From Deltaproteobacteria bacterium (GTDB lineage: Bacteria > Desulfobacterota > DSM-4660 > Desulfatiglandales > B25-G16): a stretch of DNA of 18,733 nt. Numbering within the stretch: position 1 is the first letter of the stretch; each line of letters opens with the position of its first letter. Positions 3,649-18,733 of this stretch are shown here, one piece after another. Location of the stretch: NCBI GenBank assembly GCA_020348625.1, contig CP070752.1, positions 301,518 to 320,250 on the forward strand, in the 5' to 3' direction. The notes under the pieces are model-generated. The model was not told the origin of the DNA, searched no databases, and was given only the letters and a program-made list of their open reading frames with translations. Both the position numbers and the translations under genes were made by a program.

Positions 3649-3987
3649 TTAGTCAAGCTTGACAATGATCACAAGCATGGAACCCGGCTCGGTCCCCATG
3701 GCCTCAATGCTGCGTTCCTCGCCCGGTGGGATAAAGAGCACATCGCCCGGCTCAACGAGGTATTCGTCGCCCTGCTTTCCCCGCACCATGATAGAGCCAG
3801 AGATGCCGTAATAGATTCGCTCGGTGGGCGAGGCGTACATCTCGGCCCCTCCTTGAGGGAGGAAGTGGGAGATCGTAGCGCTGAGTCGCTGTGCTCCGTC
3901 CTTCGGACCTACCTTGTGAAGACCCCACTGATCGAAGTGGCGCTTTACCTCGACATGTTCACCTTCTCCTCTTTTAATGAGTTTCAT
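3649..3987 (-). CDS. Small cupin-domain protein lacking the metal-binding histidines
   Basis: This is a 112-residue single-domain cupin. The two cupin motifs are recognisable: GGAEMYASPTERIYYGISG (residues 46-64) and PGDVLFIPPGEER (80-92). In motif 1 the usual HxH pair is absent, leaving only E56, and in motif 2 the usual His is Arg92. A metal-dependent oxygenase or isomerase role is therefore unlikely, and ligand binding or sensing is more plausible. AAAGGAGG lies 8 bases before the ATG. It sits between the SDR gene and the HCDH-family gene in the same orientation with short gaps, so it belongs to the operon. The specific role is unknown. Confidence 0.8.
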   Translation of the reverse strand: MKLIKRGEGEHVEVKRHFDQWGLHKVGPKDGAQRLSATISHFLPQGGAEMYASPTERIYYGISGSIMVRGKQGDEYLVEPGDVLFIPPGEERSIEAMGTEPGSMLVIIVKLD

Positions 3988-4020: not shown

Positions 4021-4794
4021 TTAGCCGATCGCCGTCAGCCCGCCATCCAGGTAGATGATCTGACCGGTGATAAAATCCGAAGCCGGTGAGGCAAGAAACA
4101 CACAGAGCCCCGCCGCCTCCTTGGGATCGGCTACCCGCTTGAGGGGCACATTTCCCACGTATCGCTGAATCTGCTCAGGGGTGCGTTTCGCCAGTACCTC
4201 AGGGGTTGCCACCAGAGACGGGGCAATAGCATTGACCGTGATGTTGTATTGCGCCCACTCAGAGGCAAGTGCCCTGGTTATCATATCCACCGCTCCCTTG
4301 GTGGCACAGTAGCCCAGGTTTCCGCCCCACAGGGTGGCCCGTGCACCCCGCACCGATGAGAGGTTGATGATCTTGCCCTTCTTGTTGTTGATCATGGTCT
4401 TGCCGAACTCCCTGCAGCAAAACATGACTCCCCTCACGTTGAGATCAAAAAGGTAGTTCCAACCCTCCAAGGGGAATTTATCGGCAGGCTCCTTGGGAAA
4501 ACCCGAGCCATGGGCATTGACCAGTATGTCCACGGTGCCGAACTGAGAGACTATTTGCTCGGCTACCTGCATCACGCTCTGCTCATCATTCACGTCCACC
4601 TGAAACGCCGTGACCTCTGAGCCCGTATCGGCCTGAATGGTTTTGGCCACCTCCTGGAGCCGCTCCAGGTTGCGGCTTGCGATGGCAAGCCGAGCACCGT
4701 ACTGAGCCAGTCCGCTAGCCATTGATCCACCGATGCTGCCTGCTCCCCCTACAACGACAGCGACTTTGCCGTCTAATCGAAACATGTCCGCCAT
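4021..4794 (-). CDS. Short-chain dehydrogenase/reductase (classical SDR)
   Basis: This NAD(P)-dependent oxidoreductase probably interconverts a hydroxyl and a carbonyl on a pathway intermediate. The 257-residue length is standard for classical SDRs. Visible motifs are the cofactor loop GGAGSIG (residues 16-22), NAHG (93-96), N119, S146/S147 in NLSSVRG, the catalytic Y162-x3-K166 and the C-terminal FITGQIIYLDGG. The segment IASRNLERL after strand 2 has no acidic residue at the strand end and carries an Arg, which may favour NADP(H), but this is weak evidence. AAGGAGG lies 8 bases before ATG 4794. The gene follows the BKACE gene after about 50 bases and precedes the cupin gene. Its exact substrate is unknown. 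Confidence 0.92.
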   Translation of the reverse strand: MADMFRLDGKVAVVVGGAGSIGGSMASGLAQYGARLAIASRNLERLQEVAKTIQADTGSEVTAFQVDVNDEQSVMQVAEQIVSQFGTVDILVNAHGSGFPKEPADKFPLEGWNYLFDLNVRGVMFCCREFGKTMINNKKGKIINLSSVRGARATLWGGNLGYCATKGAVDMITRALASEWAQYNITVNAIAPSLVATPEVLAKRTPEQIQRYVGNVPLKRVADPKEAAGLCVFLASPASDFITGQIIYLDGGLTAIG

Positions 4795-4843: not shown

Positions 4844-5713
4844 TCACAACGGCTTGAGGCCGAGTAGTTTCCGGGCCTCATTGGGTTTCATGGGCTCTTT
4901 GCCCAACTCCCGGGCAATCCGCACCGATCGAGCCACTACCTGGGCATTGCTAGCAGCAGGCTCACCCTTGCGGTAGTAAAGGTTATCCTCGAACCCGACA
5001 CGGATACCTCCCCCGAGGATCATGCCCATGGTAGTGAGAGGCAGTTCCTCCTTTCCGATGGCGAGGATGCTCCAGATCGTATCATCCGGTTCGGGAAGAT
5101 CCTCGAGAAACATCCATAGATGTCGAGGCGTCGCTTCCACACCTCCATGATACGCATGACCGAGCGCGAATTCCACGAGGTAGGGCTTGTCTACCAGGCC
5201 CTTGGCAATGAGGTTTTTTACCTCCCGCAGGTGAGAGAGATTGAATACCTCCATGGAGGGTTTCACCCCCGCCTCCCTCATCCTTTGGGCCCATTCTTCG
5301 AAGTGTTTCGCCCATCGCAAGTCCCCGGTGCCTGCATAGGGACCGAAGCTGCGGACCATCGTTCCCATATCCAGGGATGCCACCTCGGGTTTCGGATCCG
5401 CCCCGAGGCATCGTATCTTATCCTCCTCTGATACCTGGGGGCCGGTGCCGGTTGTATCCTGAATAATGATATCGCAACCGAGGGACCGTATCTTGCTGTG
5501 TATTTCGCTGTACACCGCCGGGTCTCCGGTGGGTATTCCGTTCTTGTCTCGGGCATGGATGTGGAGTTGACATGCACCTTCATTCCAGCAATCATAGACA
5601 GCTTTCGCGATCTCGTCAGGCTGTTCTGGTACATTGGGATTCCGATCCCTGGTTCCTGCAACCCCACCGGTTGTGGCCACCGTGATCATAACCTTATCTT
5701 CAGGTAATTTCAC
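4844..5713 (-). CDS. BKACE / 3-keto-5-aminohexanoate cleavage enzyme family (DUF849), copy 1
   Basis: Members of this family condense a 3-keto acid with acetyl-CoA to give acetoacetate and a new acyl-CoA, using a zinc ion in a TIM barrel. The 289 residues show the metal pair H51-x-H53 in LHIHARD, the strand-loop DIIIQDTTGTG, and GGGIRVGFEDN with the third metal ligand Glu. Starting with GTG at 5713, the gene lies two bases after the cyclase stop, and its GGAGG ribosome site is inside the last codons of that gene, so the two are coupled. By alignment from memory with the Kce reference enzyme, the active-site Glu14 position is Val18 here, so an amino-keto acid is probably not the substrate. The actual 3-keto acid is unknown. 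Confidence 0.92.
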   Translation of the reverse strand: MKLPEDKVMITVATTGGVAGTRDRNPNVPEQPDEIAKAVYDCWNEGACQLHIHARDKNGIPTGDPAVYSEIHSKIRSLGCDIIIQDTTGTGPQVSEEDKIRCLGADPKPEVASLDMGTMVRSFGPYAGTGDLRWAKHFEEWAQRMREAGVKPSMEVFNLSHLREVKNLIAKGLVDKPYLVEFALGHAYHGGVEATPRHLWMFLEDLPEPDDTIWSILAIGKEELPLTTMGMILGGGIRVGFEDNLYYRKGEPAASNAQVVARSVRIARELGKEPMKPNEARKLLGLKPL

Positions 5714-5715
5714 GC

Positions 5716-6471
5716 CTACTCCTCCACAATAGCCACTAACCGAACCAAAGAGGCATCGCCCTCCTCATACTTGATGGGAAAGGCCGCAATGGTACAGCGC
5801 ATTCCGGTTACCTCATCAACGTCGCCGCCGGCGTTCTCGATACCGGGGATTCCGGCACCGTAGAGAATCCGGTGGGCCGGTTCATTTTCAGGGTATTCTA
5901 TATCCGGGTCCCGTCCCGTCTCTCGCCGGTACTCCTCATCCAGCCAGGGCATTACCTTGGAGAGGGGATAGTGTCCCAACGCGAGGTCAGTGGCGCCGGC
6001 AGTCTGGGCAACCCCTTTCACCTTTTTCTTCACGAGCCACTCAGCCCCCTTTCGGTAGAGCCCGGGATAGTGATTCCAATACTCATAGTCTGAGACCTTC
6101 CATTTATGATGCCACCCCGTGTTGATCACCACCCAGTCTCCCGGTTCTATCTTAGGCTTGGCCTTCTCCAGGTCTTCTGGGGTGATTTCTTCCCATTTCT
6201 TCTTGTACCTCATATCCACGACCACACCGGTCCCATAACAGCTGGTGAGCGGCAGTTGGTCGATTGACCATCCTCCTGGTGTTACGTGGATCTCGGCATC
6301 CATATGGGTGCCGTGATGCATCTTTAAGGTGAGAACCGTGGTGTAGCGTCCCTTGTCACGAGCGGGGTATGCAACCCGTCTGATCTCCACATCCGGCATT
6401 TCCCCAGGGTGAGGCCACATGGGTGTATTCCGCCCTAACGGGTGGCTTAGATCAACAATTTTGGTACTCAT
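5716..6471 (-). CDS. Cyclase-family metal-dependent hydrolase (kynurenine formamidase-like), copy A
   Basis: The protein belongs to the cyclase/kynurenine formamidase family (PF04199), whose members hydrolyse amide or ring bonds with bound metal. In 251 residues it keeps H52-x3-H56-x-D58-x3-H62 in the stretch MHHGTHMDAEIHV, HYPLSKVMPW in the middle, and IENAGGDVDEVTG near the end, which supplies the usual catalytic Glu. The family motif normally reads HxGTHxDxPxH; here the Pro is Glu60. AAAGGAG precedes ATG 6471 by about 8 bases. It is the first structural gene after the GntR regulator and overlaps functionally with the following BKACE gene through a shared ribosome site. A ring-opening step feeding BKACE is inferred, not shown. 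Confidence 0.9.
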   Translation of the reverse strand: MSTKIVDLSHPLGRNTPMWPHPGEMPDVEIRRVAYPARDKGRYTTVLTLKMHHGTHMDAEIHVTPGGWSIDQLPLTSCYGTGVVVDMRYKKKWEEITPEDLEKAKPKIEPGDWVVINTGWHHKWKVSDYEYWNHYPGLYRKGAEWLVKKKVKGVAQTAGATDLALGHYPLSKVMPWLDEEYRRETGRDPDIEYPENEPAHRILYGAGIPGIENAGGDVDEVTGMRCTIAAFPIKYEEGDASLVRLVAIVEE

Positions 6472-6588
6472 TTTTATACTCCTTTTTTAAACGGTTATGT
6501 ATCTTAGCTCAAGCAATACTCTAGTTTTTCCATCCAAGCAGACATTGAAACATCCTTATAAGAACACCTTTATGATTTCATAGCAAAT
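6472..6588 (-). other. Gap between GntR regulator 1 and cyclase A
   Basis: This 117-bp spacer holds the AAAGGAG ribosome site of the cyclase gene. It is A/T-rich with a TATAAG hexamer near 6554-6560 on the minus strand, but I cannot pair it with a convincing -35 element at standard spacing. No hairpin followed by a T-run is seen. The structural genes may therefore be read through from the regulator promoter or have their own weak promoter here. Confidence 0.3.
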
Positions 6589-7317
6589 TCACGTTCTCGT
6601 CAACTCTATGCGATATTTGTATAAGTCAGGCCGGAAATACGTTAACGACATAAACAAGGGCGAACCATCTCTGGAATAGTATTCCCGTTCGATAACAAGA
6701 ACAGGGCTCTTTGGTGGAATGGATAGGTTTCTCGCAACGACCTCATCGGCTACCGCCACATCGATCGTTTGACTCGCACGGTGTGCCCTTGTATTCGATT
6801 TCTCCTCGACAAACACGATCATGTCAATCTTTTCCGACAGCTCTTCCGGGGAAATCTTTTCCCCCAAATCAGGAGGTAGATAGACAAAGGAATAACCAAA
6901 AGGCCCTTTTGTGGCTAACCGAACCGCTTCAACCATAAAAACCTTTTGATGTTCCTTTAACTTAAATACCTTGGCCACATGAGGTGGGGGAAGAAATTCC
7001 TTGTATGCTAAGACCTTGAGACGAGTGCCTCTCCCCGCAGCGATCAGGTTTTCAATCGTGCCCTTCAAGGCCAGCTGCTTAAGCCCCGTTCTATCGGTTA
7101 CAAAACTGCCCTTTCCACGCTCCCGATAAATAAAGCCCTCCTGCACCAATTCTGAGAGGGCTTGACGCACGGTAGCGCGGCTGAGTCCATAATCGATGCA
7201 GAGCGCGGATTCCGATGGCAGGCGCTCCTGACCTTTTAGTTCATTTGAAAGGATCTTAGATTTGAGGATATTCTTGAGTTGAAAATAAAGAGGAGTTGGT
7301 CCAGGATCAAACAGCAT
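6589..7317 (-). CDS. GntR-family transcriptional regulator, HutC/UTRA type, copy 1
   Basis: This is a ligand-responsive DNA-binding repressor or activator. In 242 residues, a winged-helix domain (about 5-75) shows LPSESALCIDYGLSRATVRQ and GFIYRERGKGSFVTD. A UTRA effector domain (about 95-240) follows, with PFGYSFVYLPP and the terminal SLTYFRPDLYKYRIELTR. The start MLFDPGPTPLYFQ is conserved with the second regulator in this window (15200-15928), which is also 242 residues from its best start. The recognition helices differ by only a few residues. It is transcribed toward the cyclase/BKACE genes and diverges from the ene-reductase. It most likely controls both and responds to a pathway acid or CoA ester; the effector is unknown. 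Confidence 0.93.
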   Translation of the reverse strand: MLFDPGPTPLYFQLKNILKSKILSNELKGQERLPSESALCIDYGLSRATVRQALSELVQEGFIYRERGKGSFVTDRTGLKQLALKGTIENLIAAGRGTRLKVLAYKEFLPPPHVAKVFKLKEHQKVFMVEAVRLATKGPFGYSFVYLPPDLGEKISPEELSEKIDMIVFVEEKSNTRAHRASQTIDVAVADEVVARNLSIPPKSPVLVIEREYYSRDGSPLFMSLTYFRPDLYKYRIELTRT

Positions 7318-7361
7318 GCCCTTTCTCCCAAAGGAAGAGATCAGACTATCTGATGAGAGAC

Positions 7362-7378
7362 TTATAATAACATTATAA
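7362..7378. promoter_or_regulatory. Inverted repeat between divergent GntR 1 and ene-reductase, possible operator
   Basis: TTATAAT-AAC-ATTATAA is a perfect 7-bp inverted repeat with a 3-bp spacer. The same stretch also reads as a direct repeat, with TTATAATAAC at 7362-7371 and 7373-7382. It sits just downstream of a candidate minus-strand promoter for the regulator, the layout expected of an autoregulatory operator. The sequence is very A/T-rich, so chance is possible. Confidence 0.4.
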
Positions 7379-7382
7379 TAAC

Positions 7383-7410
7383 CTAATATCTAATATATAT
7401 CATTTGTCAA
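7383..7410 (-). promoter_or_regulatory. Candidate sigma70-type promoter for GntR regulator 1
   Basis: On the minus strand, a consensus -35 TTGACA (7405-7410) is followed after 16 bases by TATTAG (7383-7388). On the plus strand the overlapping TTGTCA (7404-7409) has a 17-base spacer to TAGCAT (7427-7432), which could drive the ene-reductase. The two promoters would overlap at their -35 elements, a common arrangement for divergent control by one regulator. Confidence 0.35.
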
Positions 7411-7517
7411 TAAAAAAACTTTTTGCTAGCATTATTCTTGAGCAACACGAATATAAATAAGTTCGAGTATATCCTAAACCTGCCTCACACATCAGCGAAA
7501 CTAAGGAGATTCTAGAA

Positions 7518-9500
7518 GTGGTAAAGTATAAGCATGTGTTTTCGCCTTTCAAAATTGGGAATGTAGAGCTCAAAAACAGGATTGAGATGCCTCCTATATT
7601 GCCATGTTCTGCTACACCCGATGGTTTCATGACCAGGGAAATGATAGAGTTCTACCGGTCATTTGCCAAAGGCGGAGCTGCGATTATTACTATTGGGGAT
7701 ACCCCTGTAGACTTCGAGTATGCACGGGGACATTTTGCCCAGTTAAACCTCGGTGATGAGAGGGTGATACCTGGACTGAGCTCAGTGGCAGAGGTTATTC
7801 ATGCCTATGGGGCAAAGATATCCATCGAGCTGAACCACGCTGGCAGGTTAGCGCCACCACGGGTTCTCAATGGTAGAAATCCTATTGCGCCTTCGCCATT
7901 ACCTCCGAAAACGGAAGAGATAGCAGCTACGGTTGAAGGTAGACGGAAAACCCAGGTTACGGAGATGAACCAGGACATGATAGACCAGGTGATCGATAAT
8001 TTCGCTAGTGCCTGTTATCGATGCCTGGAAGCCGGGCTCGATATGGTAATGCTGCACGGCGGTCATGGCTGGCTTTTGGGACAGTTTGTATCGCCTTACT
8101 CGAACAAAAGGAAAGATGCCTATGGTGGAAGCCTTGAGAACAGGGCGAAATTCGTAGTCGACCTCCTGACAGCCATCAGGAGGCGAGTGGGCAACAGGTT
8201 GGCCTTGGAGTATCGCGTTAGTGTGGATGAAGTTATTCCCGAAGGAATGCACGAGGAGGAAACCATCGAGTTCCTTAAAATGATAGAAGATAAGGTCGAT
8301 CTCATTCATGCATCAGTGGGCCTAATAGGCGACCCTAGATGCACAACTCGTATAATCCAGCCTATTTACTCCGCACATGCTTTTAACGTGGGAAGAGCGG
8401 AAAAGATAAAGAAAGCGTTGAGAACTCCAGTGACATGCGTCGGCTCGATTATGGACCTGGCAACGGCTGATAGAATTATTGCGGAAGGAAAAGCCGATAT
8501 AGTCGCCATAGGACGGGCACATATGTCAGACCCTGAAATCATAAATAAGACTATCCGTGGTGAACTAGACGACATAAGGCCTTGCATTCGCTGCAACCTG
8601 TGTCATGAAAGAGTGGCTCCTCCCGTTTCCCTGCCAATTCGGTGTACGGTAAATCCAGTAGTCGGCAGGGAATTGGAATATAGATATATACGTATGCGGG
8701 AAAAGAGGAAGACTGTCCTTATAGCAGGAGGTGGGCCAGCAGGCATGGAAGCCGCCTTAGTGGCCTCTTCACGAGGGCATCAAGTAGCCCTGTATGAAAA
8801 GGAAAAAGAGCTGGGTGGAGCCCTCCATTACGCAGCAGGGCCTGCATTCAAATCCGATATGAAGAAGTATCTGGATTGGATGATAATGAAGACACAGCAG
8901 GCGCCCGTGGAGATCAAATTATCGACTGAGGCTACTGCCGTGTCCATCGAAGCCGCAAAACCGGATGTGCTCATAGTGGCAGTTGGTGCAGAGCCTATCA
9001 TTCCGGATATTCCGGGCGTGGATAAGCCTCATGTTACCTGGGCAGGGGATGTGGAGTTAGGCAAGGCAAAAACAGGGGAGACGGTACTAATAGTCGGAGC
9101 CGGATTGACCGGATGCGAAACTGCGCTGCACCTTGCTCAGCAAAGCAAAAACGTGAAGATCTTTGATATGATTAGTGAAGCGGAAATTGCCAAAGATGTC
9201 GCCTCTGTCAGCAGACCGGTGTTATTACAATTGCTTCGTGAGCACGGCGTTGAATTCAAGACCGAGGTGAAACTGGAAGAAATAACCGACAAGTGTGTCC
9301 TTGTCATTGATAGGCAGGGGAATCGATTTGAAATACCCGCTGACACCGTCGTGTTGTCCGCAGGCTTCAAGGCTCGGCGCGAAACCGTGAATTCATTTCG
9401 GGGATTAGCACCTGAGGTCTACGTGGTCGGGGATTGCTCAAGCCCACGCAATCTCATGGCGGCAATCCATGATGCCTTCAATGTTGCTGTGGAAATATGA
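7518..9500 (+). CDS. NADH:flavin oxidoreductase / 2,4-dienoyl-CoA reductase-type ene-reductase (FMN, 4Fe-4S, FAD)
   Basis: This enzyme reduces an activated C=C bond, passing electrons from NAD(P)H through FAD and a 4Fe-4S cluster to FMN. Its 660 residues split as an old-yellow-enzyme TIM barrel (about 1-340), a cysteine cluster (C356, C359, C362, C376) and a C-terminal two-dinucleotide-fold reductase. The latter has VLIAGGGPAGMEAA (near 402) and VLIVGAGLTGCETA (near 523). The barrel shows HGGHGWLLGQFVSPYSNKR, including the family HxxH-like substrate loop. The third cysteine spacing is C-x2-C-x2-C rather than the classic C-x2-C-x3-C. GTG at 7518 is chosen because AAGGAG is 9 bases upstream. 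It is the only plus-strand gene between the two minus-strand modules, and diverges from GntR 1. Possible substrates are an enoyl-CoA or a ring enone. Confidence 0.92.
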   Translation: MVKYKHVFSPFKIGNVELKNRIEMPPILPCSATPDGFMTREMIEFYRSFAKGGAAIITIGDTPVDFEYARGHFAQLNLGDERVIPGLSSVAEVIHAYGAKISIELNHAGRLAPPRVLNGRNPIAPSPLPPKTEEIAATVEGRRKTQVTEMNQDMIDQVIDNFASACYRCLEAGLDMVMLHGGHGWLLGQFVSPYSNKRKDAYGGSLENRAKFVVDLLTAIRRRVGNRLALEYRVSVDEVIPEGMHEEETIEFLKMIEDKVDLIHASVGLIGDPRCTTRIIQPIYSAHAFNVGRAEKIKKALRTPVTCVGSIMDLATADRIIAEGKADIVAIGRAHMSDPEIINKTIRGELDDIRPCIRCNLCHERVAPPVSLPIRCTVNPVVGRELEYRYIRMREKRKTVLIAGGGPAGMEAALVASSRGHQVALYEKEKELGGALHYAAGPAFKSDMKKYLDWMIMKTQQAPVEIKLSTEATAVSIEAAKPDVLIVAVGAEPIIPDIPGVDKPHVTWAGDVELGKAKTGETVLIVGAGLTGCETALHLAQQSKNVKIFDMISEAEIAKDVASVSRPVLLQLLREHGVEFKTEVKLEEITDKCVLVIDRQGNRFEIPADTVVLSAGFKARRETVNSFRGLAPEVYVVGDCSSPRNLMAAIHDAFNVAVEI

Positions 9501-9590
9501 GGAATAGACCTTTTTTCGGTAACAGGTGTTGCGAGCGTGTCCACACGTTGCAAGCGATGCCCACTGAAATGCCTATACTGTCCATGGTCT
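9501..9590. other. Convergent gap with an imperfect hairpin
   Basis: The ene-reductase and the deacetylase-like gene end toward each other across 90 bases. A weak hairpin (9529-9553; TTGC/GCAA and CGTG/CACG arms with an internal mismatch) is present. A T-run lies upstream of it on the plus strand (9511-9516), not downstream, so it does not look like a normal intrinsic terminator on either strand. Confidence 0.3.
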
Positions 9591-10394
9591 CTACTTCTCA
9601 CCAAATGGATAGTCGGGTTCCTCTTCTAACGGTATCTTTGGCTGAGGTGTTTGATACTGGACCTCGGTATTCATGGGGATTTGTGCATTTGGCAGAATGA
9701 GAGGATTGCTCACGAATTCATCCAGTGATTTCCAAGTAACAATATTTGCATCCAAGAAATCCTGGTAAACATTCCACCAGTGTAGCTTAACTCCGCTGAG
9801 GTGGGTTTGGGCCACCAGAATGATACGCTCTTCTTTCAAGCCAAATAGAATCTCTTTGAAATCCTGCGGAGTCGCACCTCTGCTCCACAAGGATTGGTCG
9901 CATAACGAGCCGGTACCCAGCTGTTTTGAAGGTACGTTGCTCACAGATACAATTGTGACATCATACTCCTTTGGCTTGTATACCACCGCTCTCGCTCCAG
10001 ACGCCCCTCGGGCAAACACATACCCAACTCCAAGTGCATCGGCCGCTTTCAGCGTAACTTCATCGTAGGCAGAGTACTTCGAGCCAAATATCCGCATGGG
10101 TTTACCTGTACGTGCTTCAACCTTGTGCTTTATGCGGGCCATCACTTCGTGTTGAAACCTATACGGTCTATCCCAAAAGGGCTGTTCATTGTAAGAACCG
10201 CAAATCTCAAATCCTTTCTTGGATAAATTTTTTATCATGCCGCTCTGCTCGGTTAGCATATACTCATTTGTCTGAATAACGGCGGGCATTCCCCTTCTTT
10301 CAAATTCATCAGCCCAGTGTCTTAAACCTTTAACATTTCCGTGGTCTATTATGAGAAACAGCGCTTCAATGTGATTAGCTTTACTCTTCTGCAT
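9591..10394 (-). CDS. Polysaccharide deacetylase-like (NodB-fold) protein, probably without deacetylase catalysis
   Basis: The 267-residue protein resembles the NodB/polysaccharide deacetylase fold: a first strand ALFLIIDHGN (11-20), a helix-strand pair ending in RGMPAVIQTNEYML, then GFEICGSYNEQPFW, and GSKYSAYDEVTLKAADALG. The usual DD of motif 1 is D17-H18, and the HxxxH metal pair of motif 2 is absent (GSYNEQ). Standard metal-dependent deacetylation is therefore doubtful; a related amide or ring hydrolase, or a non-enzymatic role, is possible. ATG 10394 has AGAAGG 7 bases upstream and is preferred to a TTG at 10424. No signal peptide is visible, so it is probably cytoplasmic. It is the last gene of the right-hand minus-strand group. 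The fold is moderately sure and the function unknown. Confidence 0.6.
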   Translation of the reverse strand: MQKSKANHIEALFLIIDHGNVKGLRHWADEFERRGMPAVIQTNEYMLTEQSGMIKNLSKKGFEICGSYNEQPFWDRPYRFQHEVMARIKHKVEARTGKPMRIFGSKYSAYDEVTLKAADALGVGYVFARGASGARAVVYKPKEYDVTIVSVSNVPSKQLGTGSLCDQSLWSRGATPQDFKEILFGLKEERIILVAQTHLSGVKLHWWNVYQDFLDANIVTWKSLDEFVSNPLILPNAQIPMNTEVQYQTPQPKIPLEEEPDYPFGEK

Positions 10395-10534
10395 CTCTCT
10401 GCCTTCTTTGGATTGATAAAACAAATAGATAAAGAACGAGGTTTCCCTTATTCAATGAGGTACCCAGAGTACAGTTCTTGGATTTTGCCGTAGGTGATCA
10501 CCCGGCTCGTCTGTCTGCCCAAATCTCATGACCC

Positions 10535-11293
10535 TTAGAGATCAAGCCCCTCAATAGCGACGACTCGGATCATCGAGCCGTCACCTTTTATCCACCTGAG
10601 CGGGAACGCTGCGATGGTAACCCGTTTGCCGGTAACTTCATCAATATCGCCCCCCACGTTCTCAATACCGGGAATATCGTTGCCGAGCAGGATTTTGTGG
10701 GCTGGCTCATAGATCGGCCATTTCTCTTGAGGATCCTCTCCGGTTTCTCGCTTGTATTCCTCATCCAGCCAAGGCATGATCTTGGAAAGTGGTGCATGGG
10801 CAAGTGGACTGTCAAGGGCACCACCAGTTATGCCGAAACCCTTAATCCCCTTCTCGAGCATCCATTCGGCCCCTTCTTTGTAGAGGCCAGGATAGTGGTT
10901 GATATAGGCGTAGTGGTCATCCCATTTGTGATGCCAACCAGTATTCACGATCACCCAGTCGCCCTTCTCAATCTTTGGAGAGGCCTTCTCTAAATCATCG
11001 GGGCCGATGATATCCCATTTTCCCAAGTGACGCATATCGACGACCACTCCGGTGCCAAAGCAACTGCTCAAAGCGACTTCATCAATACCTTTGCCATCAC
11101 CGATAACATGGAAGGGGGCATCCATATGGGTGGATGTATGCATTTTGCAGTGAAAAACAGCCGACTGCTTTCCGTCTCGTTCATGATACAGCATCCGCTC
11201 AATAACGAGGTCTTGCATCTGGCCAACCCACGGCCAAATGGGGATACCCATCTCAATAGGCTGTGATAGATTGTAGAATTTCAATTCTCTCAT
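10535..11293 (-). CDS. Cyclase-family metal-dependent hydrolase (kynurenine formamidase-like), copy B
   Basis: A second member of the PF04199 hydrolase family, 252 residues, in line with copies A and C. Metal-site residues are H52-x3-H56-x-D58-x3-H62 in MHTSTHMDAPFHV, where the usual glycine of HxGTH is Ser54. HAPLSKIMPW and IENVGGDIDEVTG supply the later conserved residues. AAAGGAGG lies 5 bases before ATG 11293. The gene directly follows a decayed thiolase fragment and precedes the deacetylase-like gene by about 140 bases. This copy differs from A and C in the loop residues after the metal motif and in IDEVALSSC, so it may act on a different ring compound. Substrate unknown. Confidence 0.9.
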   Translation of the reverse strand: MRELKFYNLSQPIEMGIPIWPWVGQMQDLVIERMLYHERDGKQSAVFHCKMHTSTHMDAPFHVIGDGKGIDEVALSSCFGTGVVVDMRHLGKWDIIGPDDLEKASPKIEKGDWVIVNTGWHHKWDDHYAYINHYPGLYKEGAEWMLEKGIKGFGITGGALDSPLAHAPLSKIMPWLDEEYKRETGEDPQEKWPIYEPAHKILLGNDIPGIENVGGDIDEVTGKRVTIAAFPLRWIKGDGSMIRVVAIEGLDL

Positions 11294-11318
11294 GACATCC
11301 TCCTTTTGCGCCTTGAAG

Positions 11319-11516
11319 TTATTTTCTGCACAACCCTTTCGCGTCAGGCTTTCTCGATGCCTGGGCTATCCCCATCTCTCGGTCGCCGCATATCGTCTCC
11401 ACGCCGTAGCAGCAACCTCTCCCTTTCAACTCATGAATGAGGGCAGCCAATCGAATGACAGCGGCTTTGGTGCATTTCCTCTCAAAAACTAATTCTATCG
11501 CTGAATTTTCAACCAA
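11319..11516 (-). pseudogene. Remnant of a thiolase (acetyl-CoA acetyltransferase) C-terminus
   Basis: The minus-strand frame ending at 11319 contains LAALIHELKGRG-x2-YGVETICGDREMGIA, which matches the end of thiolases, where the pattern is L-x-HEL-x-RG-x2-YG-x2-T-x-C-x-GG-x-GMGIA. The catalytic cysteine position is kept, but the glycines that shape the loop are replaced by Asp, Arg and Glu, and the residues before it no longer match a thiolase (no NxxGGAIAxGHP motif). Only about 40 residues are recognisable out of a normal 390, and no valid start or ribosome site is present. I interpret it as a truncated, mutated gene left in front of cyclase B. The identification is from remembered family motifs. 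Confidence 0.6.
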
Positions 11517-11807
11517 AAAAGGGCCCTAAGATCATTGAGAGATCAAGCGGCGCAACACCATCTCTCTGCATTTCAATTTCACAATGAAAGAATTAGATAT
11601 TTGTTTTGACATTGCATCCAGCAGATGCGTCCAGCAATTGTTGTGGTTGAGATAAAGTCTAATAATTTGATCGGCTTATCTTTGGATGTCACTAAAAGCA
11701 AGTGGACGCACTCCTGATGTTATGCTGAATTGTACATTTTGTGGTCATATATGGCTTACCCCAAAACGATGTATTTTATGTTTTGAGAGACTTTTTAATA
11801 TAGGTCC
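11517..11807. other. Non-coding stretch beside the thiolase remnant
   Basis: Together with the remnant this makes a 514-bp gap (11294-11807) between cyclase B and the radical SAM gene. It is more A/T-rich than the neighbouring genes. On the plus strand a short frame from 11686 encodes a CxxCGH...CxxC pattern resembling a zinc ribbon, but it has no ribosome site and its second half lies on the antisense of the radical SAM gene. On the minus strand a 20-codon frame (11509-11571) with coding-like codons follows a stop-rich region. I see no terminator or convincing promoter. The stretch looks like degraded coding DNA. Confidence 0.4.
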
Positions 11808-13133
11808 TCAGGACAAGGTTTTCTCGAAAGCAGGTATCCCTCTGTACCCTCTTGCCTCCAACTTTTGTTTGGATAAAGTCCCAGTGCCATGGTAATATTC
11901 CCAATCCATTTGACAACTGGGAACATAGGCATTAAAACCTCCCATTTGCGTTGCATACGGCATTTCTATGCCATGCTTCTGTCTCAGCTCTGCGTATGCC
12001 TTTTGGGCTTCTATGTAGTACTCAAGAGGAGGTGGTGTCTGGTCACCCAAAGCGGAACCGTGCTCGATAAACCAAAAGCGATGTCTTGGGAGCACTCCAT
12101 GGCTCATCAGGAAATCCCAACCCTCTGTTATTGACTTAACCGCTGTACTGACATCTGTAAATCCATATGGCTTTGCCATCTCAACCCCGAGGACGAAATT
12201 GGGATTGACCTGTAGCGGACCAAAAATATCTACTGCTTTGATAGTCCGCCTTATCCATTCATCATACCCGACAGATTTATTTTTCCCGGGGCAGATCCAC
12301 TCAAACAATTTCCTGTCCCAGACTTCCATATTGGGTTCAACGGAGGTGACTATTCCAGTATCGTGGATCACCTTCCAGTTCTCATCAGTCTGGGCACCAA
12401 TCTGGAGGGTGAGAGGAGGAGCTGCCCCTAGCTTTTCCCTCATGGCAGTCAGACGACTGCAGTAAAATTCCAGCTCAGTCTGCCCCTTGTATGTGCCCAG
12501 GATTGTCCCCCCCGATACAATGATGAATCTTTGGTGGAGAGGGTCTATGGAAAGAGCGGTCGCTAGTACCTCAGATATGGCCTCGGGTGTTTTTCTAACT
12601 ACGGTAGACTCGCCTCCTGCCTTTTGGTCCTTCAACGTTGGATTTATATTGCAGAAGAGACACTGGTCTTTTGTATTCCAATACTCACAATAATTATTAA
12701 ATATAAAAAATATTACTCTATCCCCAAAGCCTTGACAGATAGCCTCCATGGGTGTCCCATCTTCCAACTTCATACCATACCACCGGGGTTTGTGGGGAAA
12801 ATAAACATTCTCGGCGATTGTTTCGCCATTTTCAGTTATGATGAAGTCATCGTCTACGAAGTCAAGCAAGTATGGAGAATTTACATCTGTCTCTAGTTGT
12901 ACGGGACAACCATCCTCCAGTCGCAGCTGCATAGGAACTCTATCTGAAAAGACTCGTGTGTCCTGTCGATCATAGGAGAAGAAGTGGTATCCCTTCCAAG
13001 CTATGTCATCTAGTTCTTGAAATCGTTGTGAAGCCCCTTTGCCGATTCTTATACCCAACCGTGCCAAATCTGTCTTTAAGATAATATTGGGGTGAACATC
13101 GGGAAACTGTTTATAAAGATCGGTCATGCTCAT
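11808..13133 (-). CDS. Radical SAM-type protein with a CX8CX2C cluster motif
   Basis: Probably a radical S-adenosylmethionine enzyme, 441 residues. After a 140-residue N-terminal part, the cluster-like motif NNYCEYWNTKDQCLFC (C149, C158, C161) starts the predicted barrel. It is followed by IIVSGGTILG, which corresponds to the SAM-binding GGE-like strand, then SVEPNMEVWDRKLF, and VNPNFVLGVEMA, as in biotin-synthase-like enzymes. The classic spacing is CX3CX2C, and here it is CX8CX2C, which is unusual. AAAGGAG lies 8 bases before ATG 13133. It follows cyclase C in the same direction across a 220-bp leader containing three possible hairpins. The reaction is unknown: a ring rearrangement or a C-C bond reaction in an anaerobic pathway would suit the context. 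Confidence 0.78.
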   Translation of the reverse strand: MSMTDLYKQFPDVHPNIILKTDLARLGIRIGKGASQRFQELDDIAWKGYHFFSYDRQDTRVFSDRVPMQLRLEDGCPVQLETDVNSPYLLDFVDDDFIITENGETIAENVYFPHKPRWYGMKLEDGTPMEAICQGFGDRVIFFIFNNYCEYWNTKDQCLFCNINPTLKDQKAGGESTVVRKTPEAISEVLATALSIDPLHQRFIIVSGGTILGTYKGQTELEFYCSRLTAMREKLGAAPPLTLQIGAQTDENWKVIHDTGIVTSVEPNMEVWDRKLFEWICPGKNKSVGYDEWIRRTIKAVDIFGPLQVNPNFVLGVEMAKPYGFTDVSTAVKSITEGWDFLMSHGVLPRHRFWFIEHGSALGDQTPPPLEYYIEAQKAYAELRQKHGIEMPYATQMGGFNAYVPSCQMDWEYYHGTGTLSKQKLEARGYRGIPAFEKTLS

Positions 13134-13217
13134 TTATCAAGCTCCTTTCAATAAAACCATCTGGGAAACCTTCAACCCAGCACATAAGCCAGGCTGCAGC
13201 TTACCGCTTTCACATAG

Positions 13218-13334
13218 GGCGCACAGCCGAAACCGTATGCGCGCCACACCATAATTATTTAGATGCCCTCAGCTAACCGGTCACTGTAGTCACGATGTCA
13301 TACAGTCTGCACCTATCGGCCCTTTTGCCGGCGC
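13218..13334 (-). promoter_or_regulatory. Hairpin-rich leader upstream of the radical SAM gene
   Basis: Three inverted repeats are stacked in the 220-bp gap on the minus strand. The first is 13309-13334: GCGCC/GGTGC enclosing GGC/GCC with an AAAAGG loop. The second is 13283-13306: ACTGTA/TACAGT with a 12-base loop. The third is 13218-13245: GGCGCGCA/TGTGCGCC with one G-U pair and a 12-base loop. None is followed by a T-run, so they are not simple terminators. They may be a structured 5' leader, mRNA processing sites or an operator. I do not recognise a known riboswitch class. Confidence 0.35.
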
Positions 13335-13353
13335 CTTATCTCCAGTTCAGCAT

Positions 13354-14115
13354 CTATTCCTCTACAATCCCTACAAGACGAACCATGCCTCCATCTGCCA
13401 GCTCGCAACGGAAGGGAAAGGCAGCTATGGTGCACCGTTTTCCTGTCAACAGATCAACATCGCCCCCGGCATTCTCAATAGTGACAATCCCTTTTTTCAT
13501 GAGGATCCGATGGCATGGCTCATACTCCGGAAAATCCACATCCGGATCTCTCCCCGTTTCCTCCCTGTATTCCTTATCCAGCCATGGCATCGTTTGGGAA
13601 AGTGGGTAATGCCACAGAGGGCTGTCCGTGGCACCCCAGGTACCGGCAACCCCCTTAACCTGTCTTTTCACCAGCCATTCCGCTGCTTCCGGGCCAAGGC
13701 CGGGGTAGTGATTGTAGTACTCATAGTTGTTATAGCGCCAAAGCTTGTGCCATCCGGTATTAAATACCACAAAGTCCCCCGGCTCTATTGTTGGGTTAGT
13801 CTTCTCGAGATCCTCTGCCGTGATAACATGCCATTTCTTCATATGTTGAAAATCCACCACCACACCGGTGCCATAGCAATTTTCAAGGGGCACTTTATCG
13901 AGCATCACTCCACCTTCCGAAGGGTGTAATACATGGCTCGGCGCATCCATATGAGTCCCTGCGTGCAAGGTTCCGGTGTACACAACGCTTCTCTTATGGA
14001 AACGTCCCAAATACTCCACCCGCTGAAAGATAAGGTCCTGTCTCGGGCCCGGAAAGGGCCACAAAGGGGTATCCACCCCGAATGGTAGAGACAAATCATA
14101 AATCTTCGTTGCCAT
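13354..14115 (-). CDS. Cyclase-family metal-dependent hydrolase (kynurenine formamidase-like), copy C
   Basis: A third PF04199-type hydrolase, 253 residues, and the one with the most canonical motif: LHAGTHMDAPSHV with H51-x3-H55-x-D57-x3-H61. HYPLSQTMPW and IENAGGDVDLLTG carry the other conserved positions. Across the three copies in the window the blocks YGTGVVVD, GYDW/GDF-V-NTGWH, YNHYPGL and PWLD-EYR-ETG-DP are shared, so they are clear paralogues. AGAGG lies about 8 bases before ATG 14115. It is downstream of BKACE copy 2, the reverse of the left module where the cyclase comes first. It probably hydrolyses a related cyclic or amide compound. Confidence 0.9.
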   Translation of the reverse strand: MATKIYDLSLPFGVDTPLWPFPGPRQDLIFQRVEYLGRFHKRSVVYTGTLHAGTHMDAPSHVLHPSEGGVMLDKVPLENCYGTGVVVDFQHMKKWHVITAEDLEKTNPTIEPGDFVVFNTGWHKLWRYNNYEYYNHYPGLGPEAAEWLVKRQVKGVAGTWGATDSPLWHYPLSQTMPWLDKEYREETGRDPDVDFPEYEPCHRILMKKGIVTIENAGGDVDLLTGKRCTIAAFPFRCELADGGMVRLVGIVEE

Positions 14116-14163
14116 TTTCTTCCTCTCTCAAAATAGGTTAGCTTATTGAGTGAGATTCTTCAC

Positions 14164-14232
14164 CTAGTACACAATAACGTCCAGTCCTCCAGCCAGCAGT
14201 CCAGATACCGTCAAGTCTCCGTATTCATCCAT
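14164..14232 (-). CDS. Possible very small ORF after BKACE copy 2
   Basis: ATG 14232 opens a 22-codon frame beginning MDEYGDLTVSG and ending at a TAG at 14164-14166. The same frame is open back into the BKACE 3' end (+1 relative to it) for about 43 codons, and the codons look like real coding choices for this genome. Only weak AAGAAA precedes the ATG. It could be a tiny peptide, a fossil of a longer BKACE C-terminus after a frameshift, or chance. Confidence 0.15.
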   Translation of the reverse strand: MDEYGDLTVSGLLAGGLDVIVY

Positions 14233-14273
14233 TTTCTTTGTTTCTTCGAGCCCATTTCCAGGCAGTTCCTTTG

Positions 14274-15125
14274 TTAACCCGAAAGTCCCAGTATCTTTCT
14301 TGCCTCCTCGGGGGTGGCCGGCTCCTTGCCAAGCTCTCGGGCAATCCGCACCGATCGAGCCACAAGCTCAGCGTTACTCTTAGCCAGCTCACCTTTGCTA
14401 TAGTGGATATTGTCCTCCATCCCTACCCTGATACATCCCCCCAAGATCATGCCCATGGTAGTCAGAGGGAGCTGTGCGGCGCCCACCGCCGTTACATTAA
14501 AGATTGCATCCTCAGGAAGAAAATCGATTAGTGATTCAAGATACCTTGGGGTAGCTTCCACAGCCCCCTGATATTTCATGCCAAGGACGAGGTTGATGTA
14601 ATACGGTTTGTCCACAAGTCCTTTAGAGATCAGATTCTCAACCTCCCGGAACATGGCGTGGCTGTAAACCTCCATCTCGGGTTTCACACCCAACTCCCTC
14701 ATCCGCGTCACATACGTTTCGATATCTTCCCGCATGTTTGAGAAAGGAATACCCGCATACTGGCCCGAGACGCGCATCAAACTGCCCATGTTAAGAGAGG
14801 CCATCTCCGGTTTGGCATAGAGACACTCGATGCGCTGTTCAGAGGTCAGATTGGGGCCACCGCCCGTGGAGTCCTGAATGATGATATCGCACTTGGCGCG
14901 GATTCGGTCATGGATCTGCTGGAAGACCTCCTTGCTTCCTGTGGTTTTCCCTTCCTTGTCTCGGGCATGTATGTGGCAGATCGCCGCTCCCTCCGAATAA
15001 CAGGCGTGGGCCGATTCAGCAATTTCCTCGGGCTGTTCAGGGAGACTGGGGTTCATCGATTTCGTCACCAGGGCACCGGTCTGCGCCACCGTGATGATCA
15101 CCTTGTCCTCAGGTAAGCCGATCAT
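14274..15125 (-). CDS. BKACE / 3-keto-5-aminohexanoate cleavage enzyme family (DUF849), copy 2
   Basis: A second BKACE of 283 residues, paralogous to the copy at 4844-5713. It keeps H51-x-H53 in CHIHARD, the QDSTGGG loop, and GGCIRVGMEDN with the third metal ligand. The tail ATPEEARKILGL matches the family C-terminus. The residue aligned from memory with Kce Glu14 is Leu19 (QTGALV), again hydrophobic. AAAGGAG lies 8 bases before ATG 15125. It is the first structural gene after GntR 2, and cyclase C follows about 158 bases later. The reaction should be 3-keto acid plus acetyl-CoA to acetoacetate plus acyl-CoA. The substrate probably differs from that of copy 1. Confidence 0.92.
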   Translation of the reverse strand: MIGLPEDKVIITVAQTGALVTKSMNPSLPEQPEEIAESAHACYSEGAAICHIHARDKEGKTTGSKEVFQQIHDRIRAKCDIIIQDSTGGGPNLTSEQRIECLYAKPEMASLNMGSLMRVSGQYAGIPFSNMREDIETYVTRMRELGVKPEMEVYSHAMFREVENLISKGLVDKPYYINLVLGMKYQGAVEATPRYLESLIDFLPEDAIFNVTAVGAAQLPLTTMGMILGGCIRVGMEDNIHYSKGELAKSNAELVARSVRIARELGKEPATPEEARKILGLSG

Positions 15126-15199
15126 TTATTACGCTCCTTTCCTTTTTTTCACATTGAATTCCAGTCCATAAGACATAACCTCGTGCTTCCACCAGGGAT

Positions 15200-15928
15200 C
15201 TATGCTCTAGTCAGCTCTATTCTGTACTTGTATAGATCCGGTCGGAAACGCGTTAACGACATAAACAGGGGTTCTCCGTCCCTGGCATAGTATTGCCGTT
15301 CGATAACGAGAACTGGGCTCTCTGTTTTGATGGAGAGATTTCTTGCTACCTCCTCAGTTGCTAGAGCAACATCGATCGTTTGGCTCGCACGGTGAACTCT
15401 TGTGCTCAGTTTTCCTTCGACAAGAGTAATGAATTCAGTTGCTTCCGAGAATTCATCCCGTGAGATTGTTTTCCCTAATTCTGGCGGTAGATAGATAAAT
15501 GAATAGCCGAATGGGCCCTTTGGAGTCAGGCGAATTATTTCGAGCTGAAAGACGTCTTGATTATCCTTTATTCGCAAGATCTCGGCCACGCGGAGGGGGG
15601 GAGACACTTCCCGGTATTCCAAAACCTTGATCCGCGTACCCCGCCCGGCGGCAATAAGGTTTTCAATCGTACCTTTCAAAGAAAGCTGTTTCAGTCCCGA
15701 CTGATCGGTAACAAAGGTCCCCTTTCCACGTTCTCGGTAGATAAAGCCCTCCTTTTCCAACTCTAAAAGGGCCTGACGAACAGTCGCGCGGCTTATGCCG
15801 TACTTGATACATAACTCGCCTTCAGATGGCAAGCGTTGCTGACCCTTCAGTTGCTGTGTGGTGATCTGGGATTTAAGGATATTCTTCAGCTGGAAATACA
15901 GGGGTGTTGGTCCGGCATCAAGGATCAC
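15200..15928 (-). CDS. GntR-family transcriptional regulator, HutC/UTRA type, copy 2
   Basis: A close paralogue of GntR 1. The winged helix includes LPSEGELCIKYGISRATVRQ and GFIYRERGKGTFVTD, and the UTRA part includes PFGYSFIYLPP and SLTRFRPDLYKYRIELTR. I set the start at GTG 15928, which has GGAG 8 bases upstream and gives 242 residues beginning at ILDAGPTPLYFQ, exactly matching the length and start of the other copy; a TTG at 15949 would add seven residues not shared. The 271 bp to the stop of the preceding gap carry two palindromic sites. It diverges from the molybdopterin oxidoreductase and is read toward BKACE 2, so it probably controls both directions. Confidence 0.92.
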   Translation of the reverse strand: MILDAGPTPLYFQLKNILKSQITTQQLKGQQRLPSEGELCIKYGISRATVRQALLELEKEGFIYRERGKGTFVTDQSGLKQLSLKGTIENLIAAGRGTRIKVLEYREVSPPLRVAEILRIKDNQDVFQLEIIRLTPKGPFGYSFIYLPPELGKTISRDEFSEATEFITLVEGKLSTRVHRASQTIDVALATEEVARNLSIKTESPVLVIERQYYARDGEPLFMSLTRFRPDLYKYRIELTRA

Positions 15929-16024: not shown

Positions 16025-16243
16025 TTCTTATTCTCACGTCACTCTGCTGGCACTACCTCCGAACCATCCCCCCCACTTTTCCAGGGCAAAAGGCGCCTCC
16101 ATTCGGGCCCACCGGCGCTGATTTCAGGATTATGTTCAAATCCATTAGTATGCTTTCTGCAATTGCAATAATAGGGAATTGATGCTAGAGACTCGAGTGA
16201 AACCATAAGATTTAGATTTTTTCCATTGAATGGGAGAGTGCCT

Positions 16244-18403: not shown

Positions 18404-18733
18404 ATGAATGTATCACTTGAAGATAACGTAGCCCTCGTAACCGGTGGGAGTCGTGGTATTGGGAAGGCAATTGCCCTTGGGCTTGCTCGCGCAGGTGCAG
18501 ATGTTGCCATAGCAAGCCGAAAACTTTCGGACCTTCAAGAAGTGGCTGATGAGATAGGCAGCCTCGGCAGGAAGGCCCTAGCTTTACCAGCGCATGTTGC
18601 CAAGATAGAGGAAATAAACACCCTAGTTAATAAGGTTACGGATACCTTCGGGAGGATCGATATCCTGGTGAATAATGCCGGTTTCAATCCCGTTATGGAT
18701 TCAGCGCTGGACATAGATGAGAGAGCCTGGGAC
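18404..18733 (+). CDS. Short-chain dehydrogenase/reductase, partial (5' end only)
   Basis: 110 codons are visible before the window ends, about 43% of a normal SDR. The N-terminal cofactor loop TGGSRGIG (residues 14-21), the strand DVAIASRK, and NNAG (near 92) are clear; the catalytic Tyr-x3-Lys lies beyond the edge. GAGGAGGGG is a few bases before ATG 18404. It is related in type to the SDR at 4021-4794 but only moderately similar, so it is not simply a duplicate. In this position it probably acts on the product of the molybdopterin enzyme, or supplies its substrate. Confidence 0.9.
   Translation, partial: MNVSLEDNVALVTGGSRGIGKAIALGLARAGADVAIASRKLSDLQEVADEIGSLGRKALALPAHVAKIEEINTLVNKVTDTFGRIDILVNNAGFNPVMDSALDIDERAWD

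What the first reader, a model, noticed from the sequence alone, without database searches (positions are those of the whole stretch)
4844..15928. Two paralogous regulator/BKACE/cyclase modules in one locus with swapped gene order
Seen: GntR, cyclase, BKACE on the left (7317 down to 4844) and GntR, BKACE, cyclase on the right (15928 down to 13354), with a third cyclase further along. The regulators share length, start and almost identical recognition helices. Family knowledge: BKACE makes acetoacetate plus an acyl-CoA from a 3-keto acid. Inference: tandem duplication and rearrangement gave two branches of one pathway, probably for two related ring-derived acids. I know of no described pathway with this gene set.
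Basis: partly seen in the sequence, partly recalled or inferred. Interest (0 to 1): 0.8.

Follow-up and report, generated by a model that had tools for sequence, protein, structure and literature searches.

The report
Two-armed anaerobic polyphenol ring-cleavage locus
This stretch of an uncultured anaerobe's genome looks like a variant of the recently described phloroglucinol (polyphenol) breakdown pathway with two ring-opening/acid-cleaving enzyme sets of separate ancestry, which suggests, but does not prove, that it feeds on more than one ring compound.

Summary
In detail: two regulator/BKACE/cyclase sets in swapped order, plus a third cyclase. The set SDR + cyclase + 3-hydroxyacyl dehydrogenase + BKACE is the architecture of anaerobic phloroglucinol degradation (PGR, DPGC, TfD, TAL; PMC10470551), so it is not undescribed. 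Of 38 public loci with window-type cyclases 28 also hold BKACE and 32 the dehydrogenase; of 41 loci with more distant cyclases, 0 hold either. A recent local duplication is rejected: cyclase, BKACE and regulator pairs are not sisters (AU p 7e-6, 5e-113, 1e-8); an older duplication is not excluded. The cyclases fall in a sister clade of the one holding Clostridium-family cyclases with DPGC's Trp20/Tyr22, and carry His, Phe and Trp at the Tyr22 site. Both BKACEs lack the Trp of the proven enzyme and differ from each other in the pocket. Best reading: reductive ring cleavage of polyhydroxybenzenes in an uncultured desulfobacterotal anaerobe, with two substrate-specialised arms, probably sharing one reductase and one dehydrogenase. 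Substrates are unknown.

The parts
6589..7317 (-). GN1, GntR/UTRA regulator, left arm
   Evidence: Pfam GntR + UTRA; own 4-row clade 100/100
5716..6471 (-). CY1, cyclase-family (PF04199) predicted C-C ring hydrolase; W19-P20-H21 at the substrate-recognition site
   Evidence: columns H52/H56/D58/H62 invariant in 15 aligned rows (metal-ligand role recalled from isatin hydrolase); model pLDDT 85.8, best fold match isatin hydrolase 5nna
4844..5713 (-). BK1, beta-keto acid cleavage enzyme, left arm
   Evidence: PF05853 278.8 bits; BK1 clade 11 rows 100/100; pocket columns V14, T82, T85, D108
4021..4794 (-). SDR1, predicted NAD(P)H reductase of the ring compound
   Evidence: sister of the SDR in the BK1 set of genome G002, SH-aLRT 99 (quick tree)
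3649..3987 (-). small cupin, recurrent in these clusters, role unknown
   Evidence: present in 10 of 45 window-type loci thresholds
2667..3626 (-). HAD, 3-hydroxyacyl-CoA-dehydrogenase family, predicted 3-hydroxy-acid dehydrogenase (TfD-like); ATG start chosen at 3626
   Evidence: PF02737/PF00725; groups with the G002 and G004 BK1-set copies (quick tree)
1..2477 (-). TRAP transporter DctM (runs off the window), DctQ, DctP
15200..15928 (-). GN2, GntR/UTRA regulator, right arm
14274..15125 (-). BK2, beta-keto acid cleavage enzyme, right arm
   Evidence: PF05853 313.1 bits; BK2 clade 16 rows 96/87; pocket columns L14, S82, G85, N108
13354..14115 (-). CY2, cyclase-family, right arm; W-P-F at the recognition site
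   Evidence: clade with L001 and L108
10535..11293 (-). CY3, third cyclase; W-P-W at the recognition site
   Evidence: clade with L001 and L102 100/100; relative in the same stretch as transhydroxylase genes in L123
11808..13133 (-). variant radical SAM protein between CY2 and CY3; also in the L001 cluster (56%)
   Evidence: NF045502 218 bits, cut-off 125
9591..10424 (-). polysaccharide-deacetylase-like protein next to CY3; same pair in L001
   Evidence: PF01522 23.7 bits, cut-off 23.1
7518..9500 (+). OYE/BaiCD-like flavin enoate reductase, divergent from GN1; possible ring or alkene reductase
   Evidence: BaiCD model 457.9 bits, under its cut-off 825; relatives in 5 of 45 window-type loci
16226..18322 (+). 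molybdopterin/tungstopterin enzyme, acetylene-hydratase-like, divergent from GN2
   Evidence: best PDB match 2e7z 1.1e-85
18404..18733 (+). start of a second SDR, runs off the window; could serve the right arm
   Evidence: PF00106

Best explanation
The window is a reductive ring-cleavage locus for polyhydroxylated benzenes, built like the phloroglucinol pathway. Inferred steps: (1) the SDR (perhaps helped by the OYE-type flavoenzyme) reduces the keto form of a polyhydroxybenzene to a cyclic diketone; (2) a cyclase-family metallohydrolase opens the ring by C-C hydrolysis; (3) the 3-hydroxyacyl-dehydrogenase-family enzyme oxidises the 3-hydroxy acid to a 3-oxo acid; (4) BKACE cleaves that acid with acetyl-CoA to acetoacetate and an acyl-CoA. 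The right arm (GntR, BK2, CY2, with CY3) and the left arm (GntR, CY1, BK1) come from different lineages, have different pockets, and probably share the left arm's SDR and dehydrogenase. They most likely serve two related ring substrates under two related regulators. Shown: gene content, lineages, residues. Inferred: every reaction and the sharing.
For: Same four families as the biochemically reconstituted pathway. In the 38 loci with window-type cyclases a dehydrogenase relative occurs in 32, BKACE in 28, SDR in 22 and a transhydroxylase large subunit in 9; in 41 loci with cyclases under 35% identity BKACE and dehydrogenase occur in 0 and SDR in 2. [quoted passage not shown]). The CY1 model's best fold match is isatin hydrolase, the characterised enzyme closest to DPGC according to the paper. 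Both BKACEs keep H46, H48, R226, E230, D231 (roles recalled). Pocket differences: CY1 His, CY2 Phe, CY3 Trp; BK1 V14/T82/T85/D108 against BK2 L14/S82/G85/N108. BK1-SDR-cupin-HAD recurs in G002 and G004, GntR-BK2-CY2-SDR in G313 and L001.
Against: No activity is shown. The window holds no transhydroxylase genes. SDR1 is not close to the solved reductase that matches a Clostridium-family cluster (115 against 355 bits). BK2's own clade includes BKACEs from loci without cyclase or SDR (L135-L139, L142; contexts L143-L147, L149): dehydrogenase beside BKACE in 5 of 6, LacI regulator in the 3 tested, TTT or TRAP genes, so BK2 alone does not prove a ring substrate. Three of the 38 loci (L008, L014, L020) show none of BKACE, dehydrogenase or SDR, and the CY3-type locus L123 has none of them in 20 kb. 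The 38 loci are not independent: many are close relatives from Oscillospiraceae. The BK1 set of G002 has no cyclase in its 19 kb contig; a creatininase-family gene precedes BK1. Differing pockets need not mean differing substrates: several BKACE subfamilies occur beside cyclases of one clade. A second SDR starts at 18404 and the rest of the genome is unseen, so the sharing is unproven.
Confidence: 0.65

Rival explanations
1. Both arms are isofunctional: all three cyclases are divergent dihydrophloroglucinol hydrolases and both BKACEs cleave 3,5-dioxohexanoate; the doubling only changes dosage or regulation.
For: BKACE subfamilies look exchangeable between clusters: beside DPGC-clade cyclases both Trp-type and NF053538-like BKACEs occur. 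Sporobacter termitidis showed one cyclase match (window type, E <= 1e-15) and 5 transhydroxylase-like matches, two of them pieces of one frame, and is reported to O-demethylate and ring-cleave methoxylated aromatics (PMC4585845 passages), which could pass through phloroglucinol.
Against: Genomes G002 and G009 hold clusters of both cyclase clades; pocket residues differ between arms and from DPGC; separate regulators.
Confidence: 0.23
2. One reading: a recent tandem duplication of one regulator/BKACE/cyclase module followed by rearrangement.
For: Same families in both sets; regulators 72% identical.
Against: AU tests reject sister placement for cyclases, BKACEs and regulators. Both BKACEs, both regulators, CY2 and CY3 have much closer relatives elsewhere: BK1 35 listed proteins at 71-93%, BK2 120 listed at 82-99%. 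CY1 does not: its nearest is 62%, about as far as CY2. An older duplication is not excluded.
Confidence: 0.03
3. The locus degrades a non-aromatic cyclic diketone or cyclic amide or imide, or imported linear 3-hydroxy acids, rather than polyphenols.
For: Cyclase-fold enzymes include amide hydrolases; BK2's clade includes BKACEs without cyclase; a deacetylase-like hydrolase and an OYE-type enoate reductase are present.
Against: Conserved SDR, cyclase and dehydrogenase neighbourhood and repeated transhydroxylase genes in the same stretches.
Confidence: 0.12

Closest known systems
Anaerobic phloroglucinol degradation cluster of Clostridium scatologenes (PGR, DPGC, TfD, TAL; PMC10470551)
   Same: Same four enzyme families clustered, with a regulator and a transporter
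   Different: Window cyclases lie outside the clade that holds Clostridium-family cyclases with Trp20/Tyr22; BKACEs lack Trp16; SDR in another clade; two BKACE/cyclase sets plus a third cyclase; TRAP transporter and two UTRA-GntR regulators (the paper names a major-family transporter and a regulator)
Pyrogallol-phloroglucinol transhydroxylase (Pelobacter acidigallici enzyme, PDB 4v4c; predicted in sediment Chloroflexi, PMC3971608, passages seen)
   Same: Large-subunit relatives lie in the same fetched stretch as window-type cyclases in 10 of 45 loci tabulated
   Different: No such genes inside the window; the genome is not held, so presence elsewhere is unknown
Isatin hydrolase (PF04199)
   Same: Fold and metal-site columns
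   Different: About 25% identity; recognition residues differ
[quoted passage not shown]
   Same: Catalytic columns of BK1 and BK2
   Different: Glu14 replaced by Val and Leu; longer loop after the 106-110 region; below the NCBIfam cut-off (244 and 302 bits against 382)

Membership tests
Phloroglucinol pathway (PGR-DPGC-TfD-TAL) | SDR, cyclase, 3-hydroxyacyl-DH family and BKACE clustered together | tested here: met
Phloroglucinol pathway | DPGC with Trp20 and Tyr22 in the substrate pocket | tested here: not met
   CY1 W-P-H, CY2 W-P-F, CY3 W-P-W. All 18 W-P-Y rows in the tree fall in the sister clade; 9 more W-P-Y rows were not in that tree
Phloroglucinol pathway | TAL with Trp in place of Glu14 | tested here: not met
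   Val in BK1 (a one-residue insertion nearby makes this column less sure), Leu in BK2; Trp in 4 of 4 Clostridium-family BKACEs read
3,5-dioxohexanoate BKACE (NCBIfam NF053538, cut-off 430) | Profile score | tested here: inconclusive
   BK1 176.6, BK2 218.9; but the Trp-type BKACE of L037 also scores only 242.1, and the six BKACEs beside other DPGC-clade cyclases score 337-416, all under the cut-off, so the score does not settle TAL function
Phloroglucinol pathway | SDR orthologous to PGR | tested here: not met
   5g4k (that it is PGR is recalled): 354.9 bits for a Clostridium-family cluster SDR, 115.2 for SDR1; separate groups in a quick tree
Phloroglucinol pathway | Enzyme activities | not testable with these tools
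   no assay
Local tandem duplication | Paired copies are sisters in trees | tested here: not met
   AU tests; older duplication not excluded
BKACE (PF05853) | Profile match and conserved metal and catalytic columns | tested here: met
[quoted passage not shown] NCBIfam NF052387 cut-off 382 | tested here: not met
   244.1 and 302.1 bits; Val and Leu
Isatin-hydrolase-like cyclase family (PF04199) | Fold and HxxxHxDxxxH metal motif (motif recalled) | tested here: met
   (fold tested for CY1 only)

The most novel reading that the evidence does not exclude
The window's cyclase clade, with its own SDR and dehydrogenase groups, defines a second reductive ring-cleavage pathway parallel to phloroglucinol degradation that opens other polyhydroxybenzenes (for example a pyrogallol-, hydroxyhydroquinone- or resorcinol-derived ring, or alkylated or acylated forms) directly; in this organism it has split into two BKACE arms and three ring hydrolases with distinct pockets.
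Probability: 0.35. Interest if true: 0.65.

Novelty: new variant of a known kind. Interest (0 to 1): 0.45.

Why it matters
It turns an unexplained gene set into a testable polyphenol ring-cleavage pathway in uncultured anaerobes, and points to a sister clade of the known ring hydrolase, found here in Bacillota, Desulfobacterota-type, Chloroflexota and Synergistota loci, whose substrates I found no report of in the searches named. That bears on how polyphenols are broken down without oxygen.

Tried and rejected
Considered and rejected: recent tandem duplication (AU tests). Direct filing as a phloroglucinol pathway member (pocket residues and SDR group not met). NF053538 score as a test of TAL function: it does not separate the window BKACEs from a Trp-type one. 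Carnitine-type function for BK2 relatives: the two dehydrogenases tested stay far under the carnitine cut-offs. Shared operator for GN1 and GN2: no common palindrome found by a simple scan of the two divergent intergenic regions; a perfect TTATAAT-AAC-ATTATAA palindrome lies upstream of GN1 only. Structure of the deacetylase-like protein: model too poor to use (pLDDT 49.7). Conserved GntR-BK2 adjacency in metagenomes rests only on equal longest-contig lengths in two listings (10 pairs, one of them L001), a hint and not a test. The paper's supplement could not be read, so I cannot say whether its survey already includes window-type clusters. Literature searches for a described window-type pathway: (open-access library only).

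Rows dropped before counts: BKACE tree uses 60 of 138 non-redundant rows (296 in all) plus 4 Clostridium-family rows; four long-branch and ten near-identical rows and 64 of 88 listed database proteins were left out. The 89-row quick tree, with the long rows in, also keeps BK1 and BK2 apart. Cyclase tree: three long rows and eleven near-identical rows left out; the 61-row tree agrees. Regulator tree: 33 of the 120 listed proteins plus 4. SDR and dehydrogenase trees are quick trees without bootstrap.

In one search the BKACE frame of L004 (uncultured Dehalococcoidia, a metabolic enzyme) was translated across one in-frame stop, which the script dropped for display; the later trees used the frame up to its stop.
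Full report
OBSERVATION. All seven named genes are present as described. Left, reading down the minus strand: GN1 6589-7317, CY1 5716-6471, BK1 4844-5713, then SDR1 4021-4794, cupin 3649-3987, HAD 2667-3626 and TRAP genes to the window edge. Right: GN2 15200-15928, BK2 14274-15125, CY2 13354-14115, then a radical SAM protein 11808-13133, CY3 10535-11293 and a polysaccharide-deacetylase-like protein 9591-10424. Two plus-strand genes diverge from the regulators: an OYE-type flavoenzyme 7518-9500 and a molybdopterin enzyme 16226-18322; the latter is followed by the start of a second SDR (18404 on). Identities: GN1/GN2 72%, BK1/BK2 58%, CY1/CY2 61%, CY1/CY3 58%, CY2/CY3 52%. No whole genome is held for the window. 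Named relatives are a Desulfatiglandales MAG for BK2 (93%) and a Deltaproteobacteria MAG for GN2 (98%; GN2 itself was listed on a 3.03 Mb contig), so I take it for an uncultured desulfobacterotal bacterium.

WHAT THE GENE SET IS. Zhou et al. 2023 (PMC10470551; abstract, introduction, results up to TAL, survey section and discussion seen) showed that phloroglucinol is degraded by an SDR reductase (PGR), a 'cyclase' family Mn-dependent C-C hydrolase (DPGC), a 3-hydroxyacyl-CoA-dehydrogenase-family enzyme (TfD) and a BKACE (TAL), encoded together. The left set of the window has these four families plus a transporter. A scan of public genomes with the three window cyclases kept the best 80 loci of more. 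In the 38 loci with closely related cyclases a HAD relative is present in 32, BKACE in 28 and SDR in 22, and at least two of these three in 28; three (L008, L014, L020) show none. In the 41 loci whose cyclase is under 35% identical, BKACE is in 0, HAD in 0 and SDR in 2. One further locus, L037, belongs to the DPGC clade. Many loci are short contigs, so the positive counts are lower bounds, and many come from related Oscillospiraceae, so they are not independent. In a hand-listed set of 45 loci with window-type cyclases, relatives of the pyrogallol hydroxytransferase large subunit occur in 10 and of the small subunit in 11; one protein of each kind was compared with the PDB and matches the solved Pelobacter enzyme best (2.5e-137 and 1.2e-67). 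The CY3-type locus L123 has these genes but no SDR, HAD or BKACE in its 20 kb.

IT IS NOT THE PHLOROGLUCINOL PATHWAY PROPER. Cyclase trees (61 rows; 55 rows) show two clades. The Clostridium-family members read W20-P21-Y22, the residues and numbers the paper gives for CsDPGC: 9 of 13 as called here, the other 4 if a start codon a few residues further in is used. Their BKACE neighbours carry the paper's Trp (4 of 4 read). BKACEs beside six other cyclases of this clade score 337-416 bits on NCBIfam's 3,5-dioxohexanoate family NF053538, all under its cut-off of 430, three of them cut by the edge of the fetched piece. That score is not decisive: the Trp-type BKACE of L037 scores 242, BK2 218.9 and BK1 176.6. 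The other clade (33 rows, 96/93) holds all three window cyclases, the Sporobacter termitidis and Sporomusa silvacetica cyclases, and Chloroflexota, Synergistota and Desulfobacterota-type ones. Over the wider alignment the residue after Trp-Pro is Tyr in 27 rows (18 of them in the tree, all in the first clade), Phe in 32 (one more reads Gly-Pro-Phe), Trp in 9 and His in one (CY1); the outliers have Ser, Ala, Arg or another motif. The paper names this position as part of substrate recognition. SDR1 is far from the solved SDR 5g4k that matches a Clostridium-family cluster SDR (115 against 355 bits; that 5g4k is the phloroglucinol reductase is recalled). A quick SDR tree splits the same way.

ORIGIN OF THE TWO ARMS. 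Cyclases: CY2 groups with L001 and G313 (L108), CY3 with L001 and G025 (L102), CY1 stands alone with no relative above 62%; AU rejects CY1+CY2, p 6.8e-6. BKACEs: within a window-type clade of 40 rows (100/100), BK1 lies in an 11-row clade (100/100) and BK2 in a 16-row clade (96/87); AU rejects BK1+BK2, p 5.5e-113. Regulators: GN1 lies in a 4-row clade (100/100), GN2 in the neighbouring 13-row group (90/91) with G313's regulator; AU rejects GN1+GN2, p 1.5e-8. These tests exclude a duplication younger than the split from the other genomes, not an older one; the regulators, the least diverged pair, could descend from an old duplication. SDR1 is sister to the G002 copy, and HAD groups with the G002 and G004 copies; these genomes have BK1-like sets. 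So BK1-SDR1-cupin-HAD looks like one inherited unit. The right set is another: G313 (L119) has GntR-BK2-CY2-SDR-cupin-HAD, and L001 has GntR-BK2-CY2-SDR-HAD followed by a LUD-domain gene, the radical SAM protein, TRAP genes, an MmgE/PrpD gene, the deacetylase-like protein and CY3, although L001's regulator falls outside the GN1/GN2 group. In the window the right arm is not followed by its own SDR and dehydrogenase, so I infer that the arms share the left ones; the SDR at 18404 or genes outside the window could serve instead. I saw no other genome with both a BK1-clade and a BK2-clade set; G004 comes nearest.

ACTIVE SITES. [quoted passage not shown] BK1 has Val14, Thr82, Thr85 and Asp108; BK2 has Leu14, Ser82, Gly85 and Asn108; two Clostridium-family TAL relatives have Trp14, Thr82, Gly85 and Asp108 (Glu14's role is from the paper, other roles recalled; BK1 has a one-residue insertion near column 14). 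The window-type BKACEs also have a longer loop after the 106-110 region. The AlphaFold model of CY1 (pLDDT 85.8; residues 22-24, 32-38 and 40-45 poor) matches isatin hydrolase best (E 5.4e-16).

LIMITS. No activity is shown. BK2's own clade includes BKACEs from six loci without cyclase or SDR: a dehydrogenase sits beside the BKACE in five, a LacI regulator in the three tested, and TTT or TRAP genes in the three tested for them. BKACE subfamilies appear exchanged among clusters, so a different BKACE does not by itself prove a different substrate. Sporobacter termitidis showed only a window-type cyclase at E 1e-15 together with transhydroxylase relatives (5 matches, two of them pieces of one frame), and it is reported to O-demethylate and ring-cleave methoxylated aromatics (PMC4585845 passages). 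This would fit either a phloroglucinol route or a direct one. That G002 and G009 hold clusters of both cyclase clades argues for different roles.

VERDICT. It is a new variant of a known kind: a phloroglucinol-type reductive ring-cleavage locus from a sister enzyme clade, with two separately inherited arms and three ring hydrolases whose recognition residues all differ. A recent local duplication is rejected. Substrates remain to be found.

Noticed in passing
16226-18322: Molybdopterin enzyme whose best solved relative is acetylene hydratase (2e7z); relatives at 33-40% recur in cyclase or BKACE loci L017, L120, L123 and L124. PMC3971608 reports acetylene-hydratase-like and pyrogallol hydroxytransferase genes in sediment Chloroflexi (passages).
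   Followed up: partly
9591-10424: Polysaccharide-deacetylase-like protein, barely above the Pfam cut-off; matched in only 2 of 395 genomes of the phylum drawn, once beside CY3 (L001) and once beside a masked fragment that by eye resembles the window's radical SAM protein (L223).
   Followed up: partly
11808-13133: Variant radical SAM protein without a Pfam match (NF045502) inside the ring-cleavage locus; role unclear.
   Followed up: no
L197 19179-19901 (G924), L198: A cyclase 97% identical to CY3 over the part in L197, in a genome with a 5.09 Mb contig, next to transhydroxylase-like genes; possible gene transfer or a close relative.
   Followed up: no
L118 9790-10770: In G002 the BK1-SDR-cupin-HAD unit is preceded by a creatininase-family hydrolase instead of a cyclase, a possible alternative ring hydrolase.
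   Followed up: partly
L143-L147, L149: Loci with a BK2-like BKACE (64-68% by best segment) but no cyclase or SDR; LacI regulator in the 3 tested, dehydrogenase in 5 of 6, TTT or TRAP genes, possibly for imported 3-hydroxy acids.
   Followed up: partly
L199, L200, L201, L204: Tandem pairs of divergent cyclase-family genes next to an SDR in four genomes (G232, G274, G970, G063); a fifth, G976, also has a tandem pair.
   Followed up: no
7318-7517: Perfect palindrome TTATAAT-AAC-ATTATAA between GN1 and the OYE gene, not found upstream of GN2.
   Followed up: no
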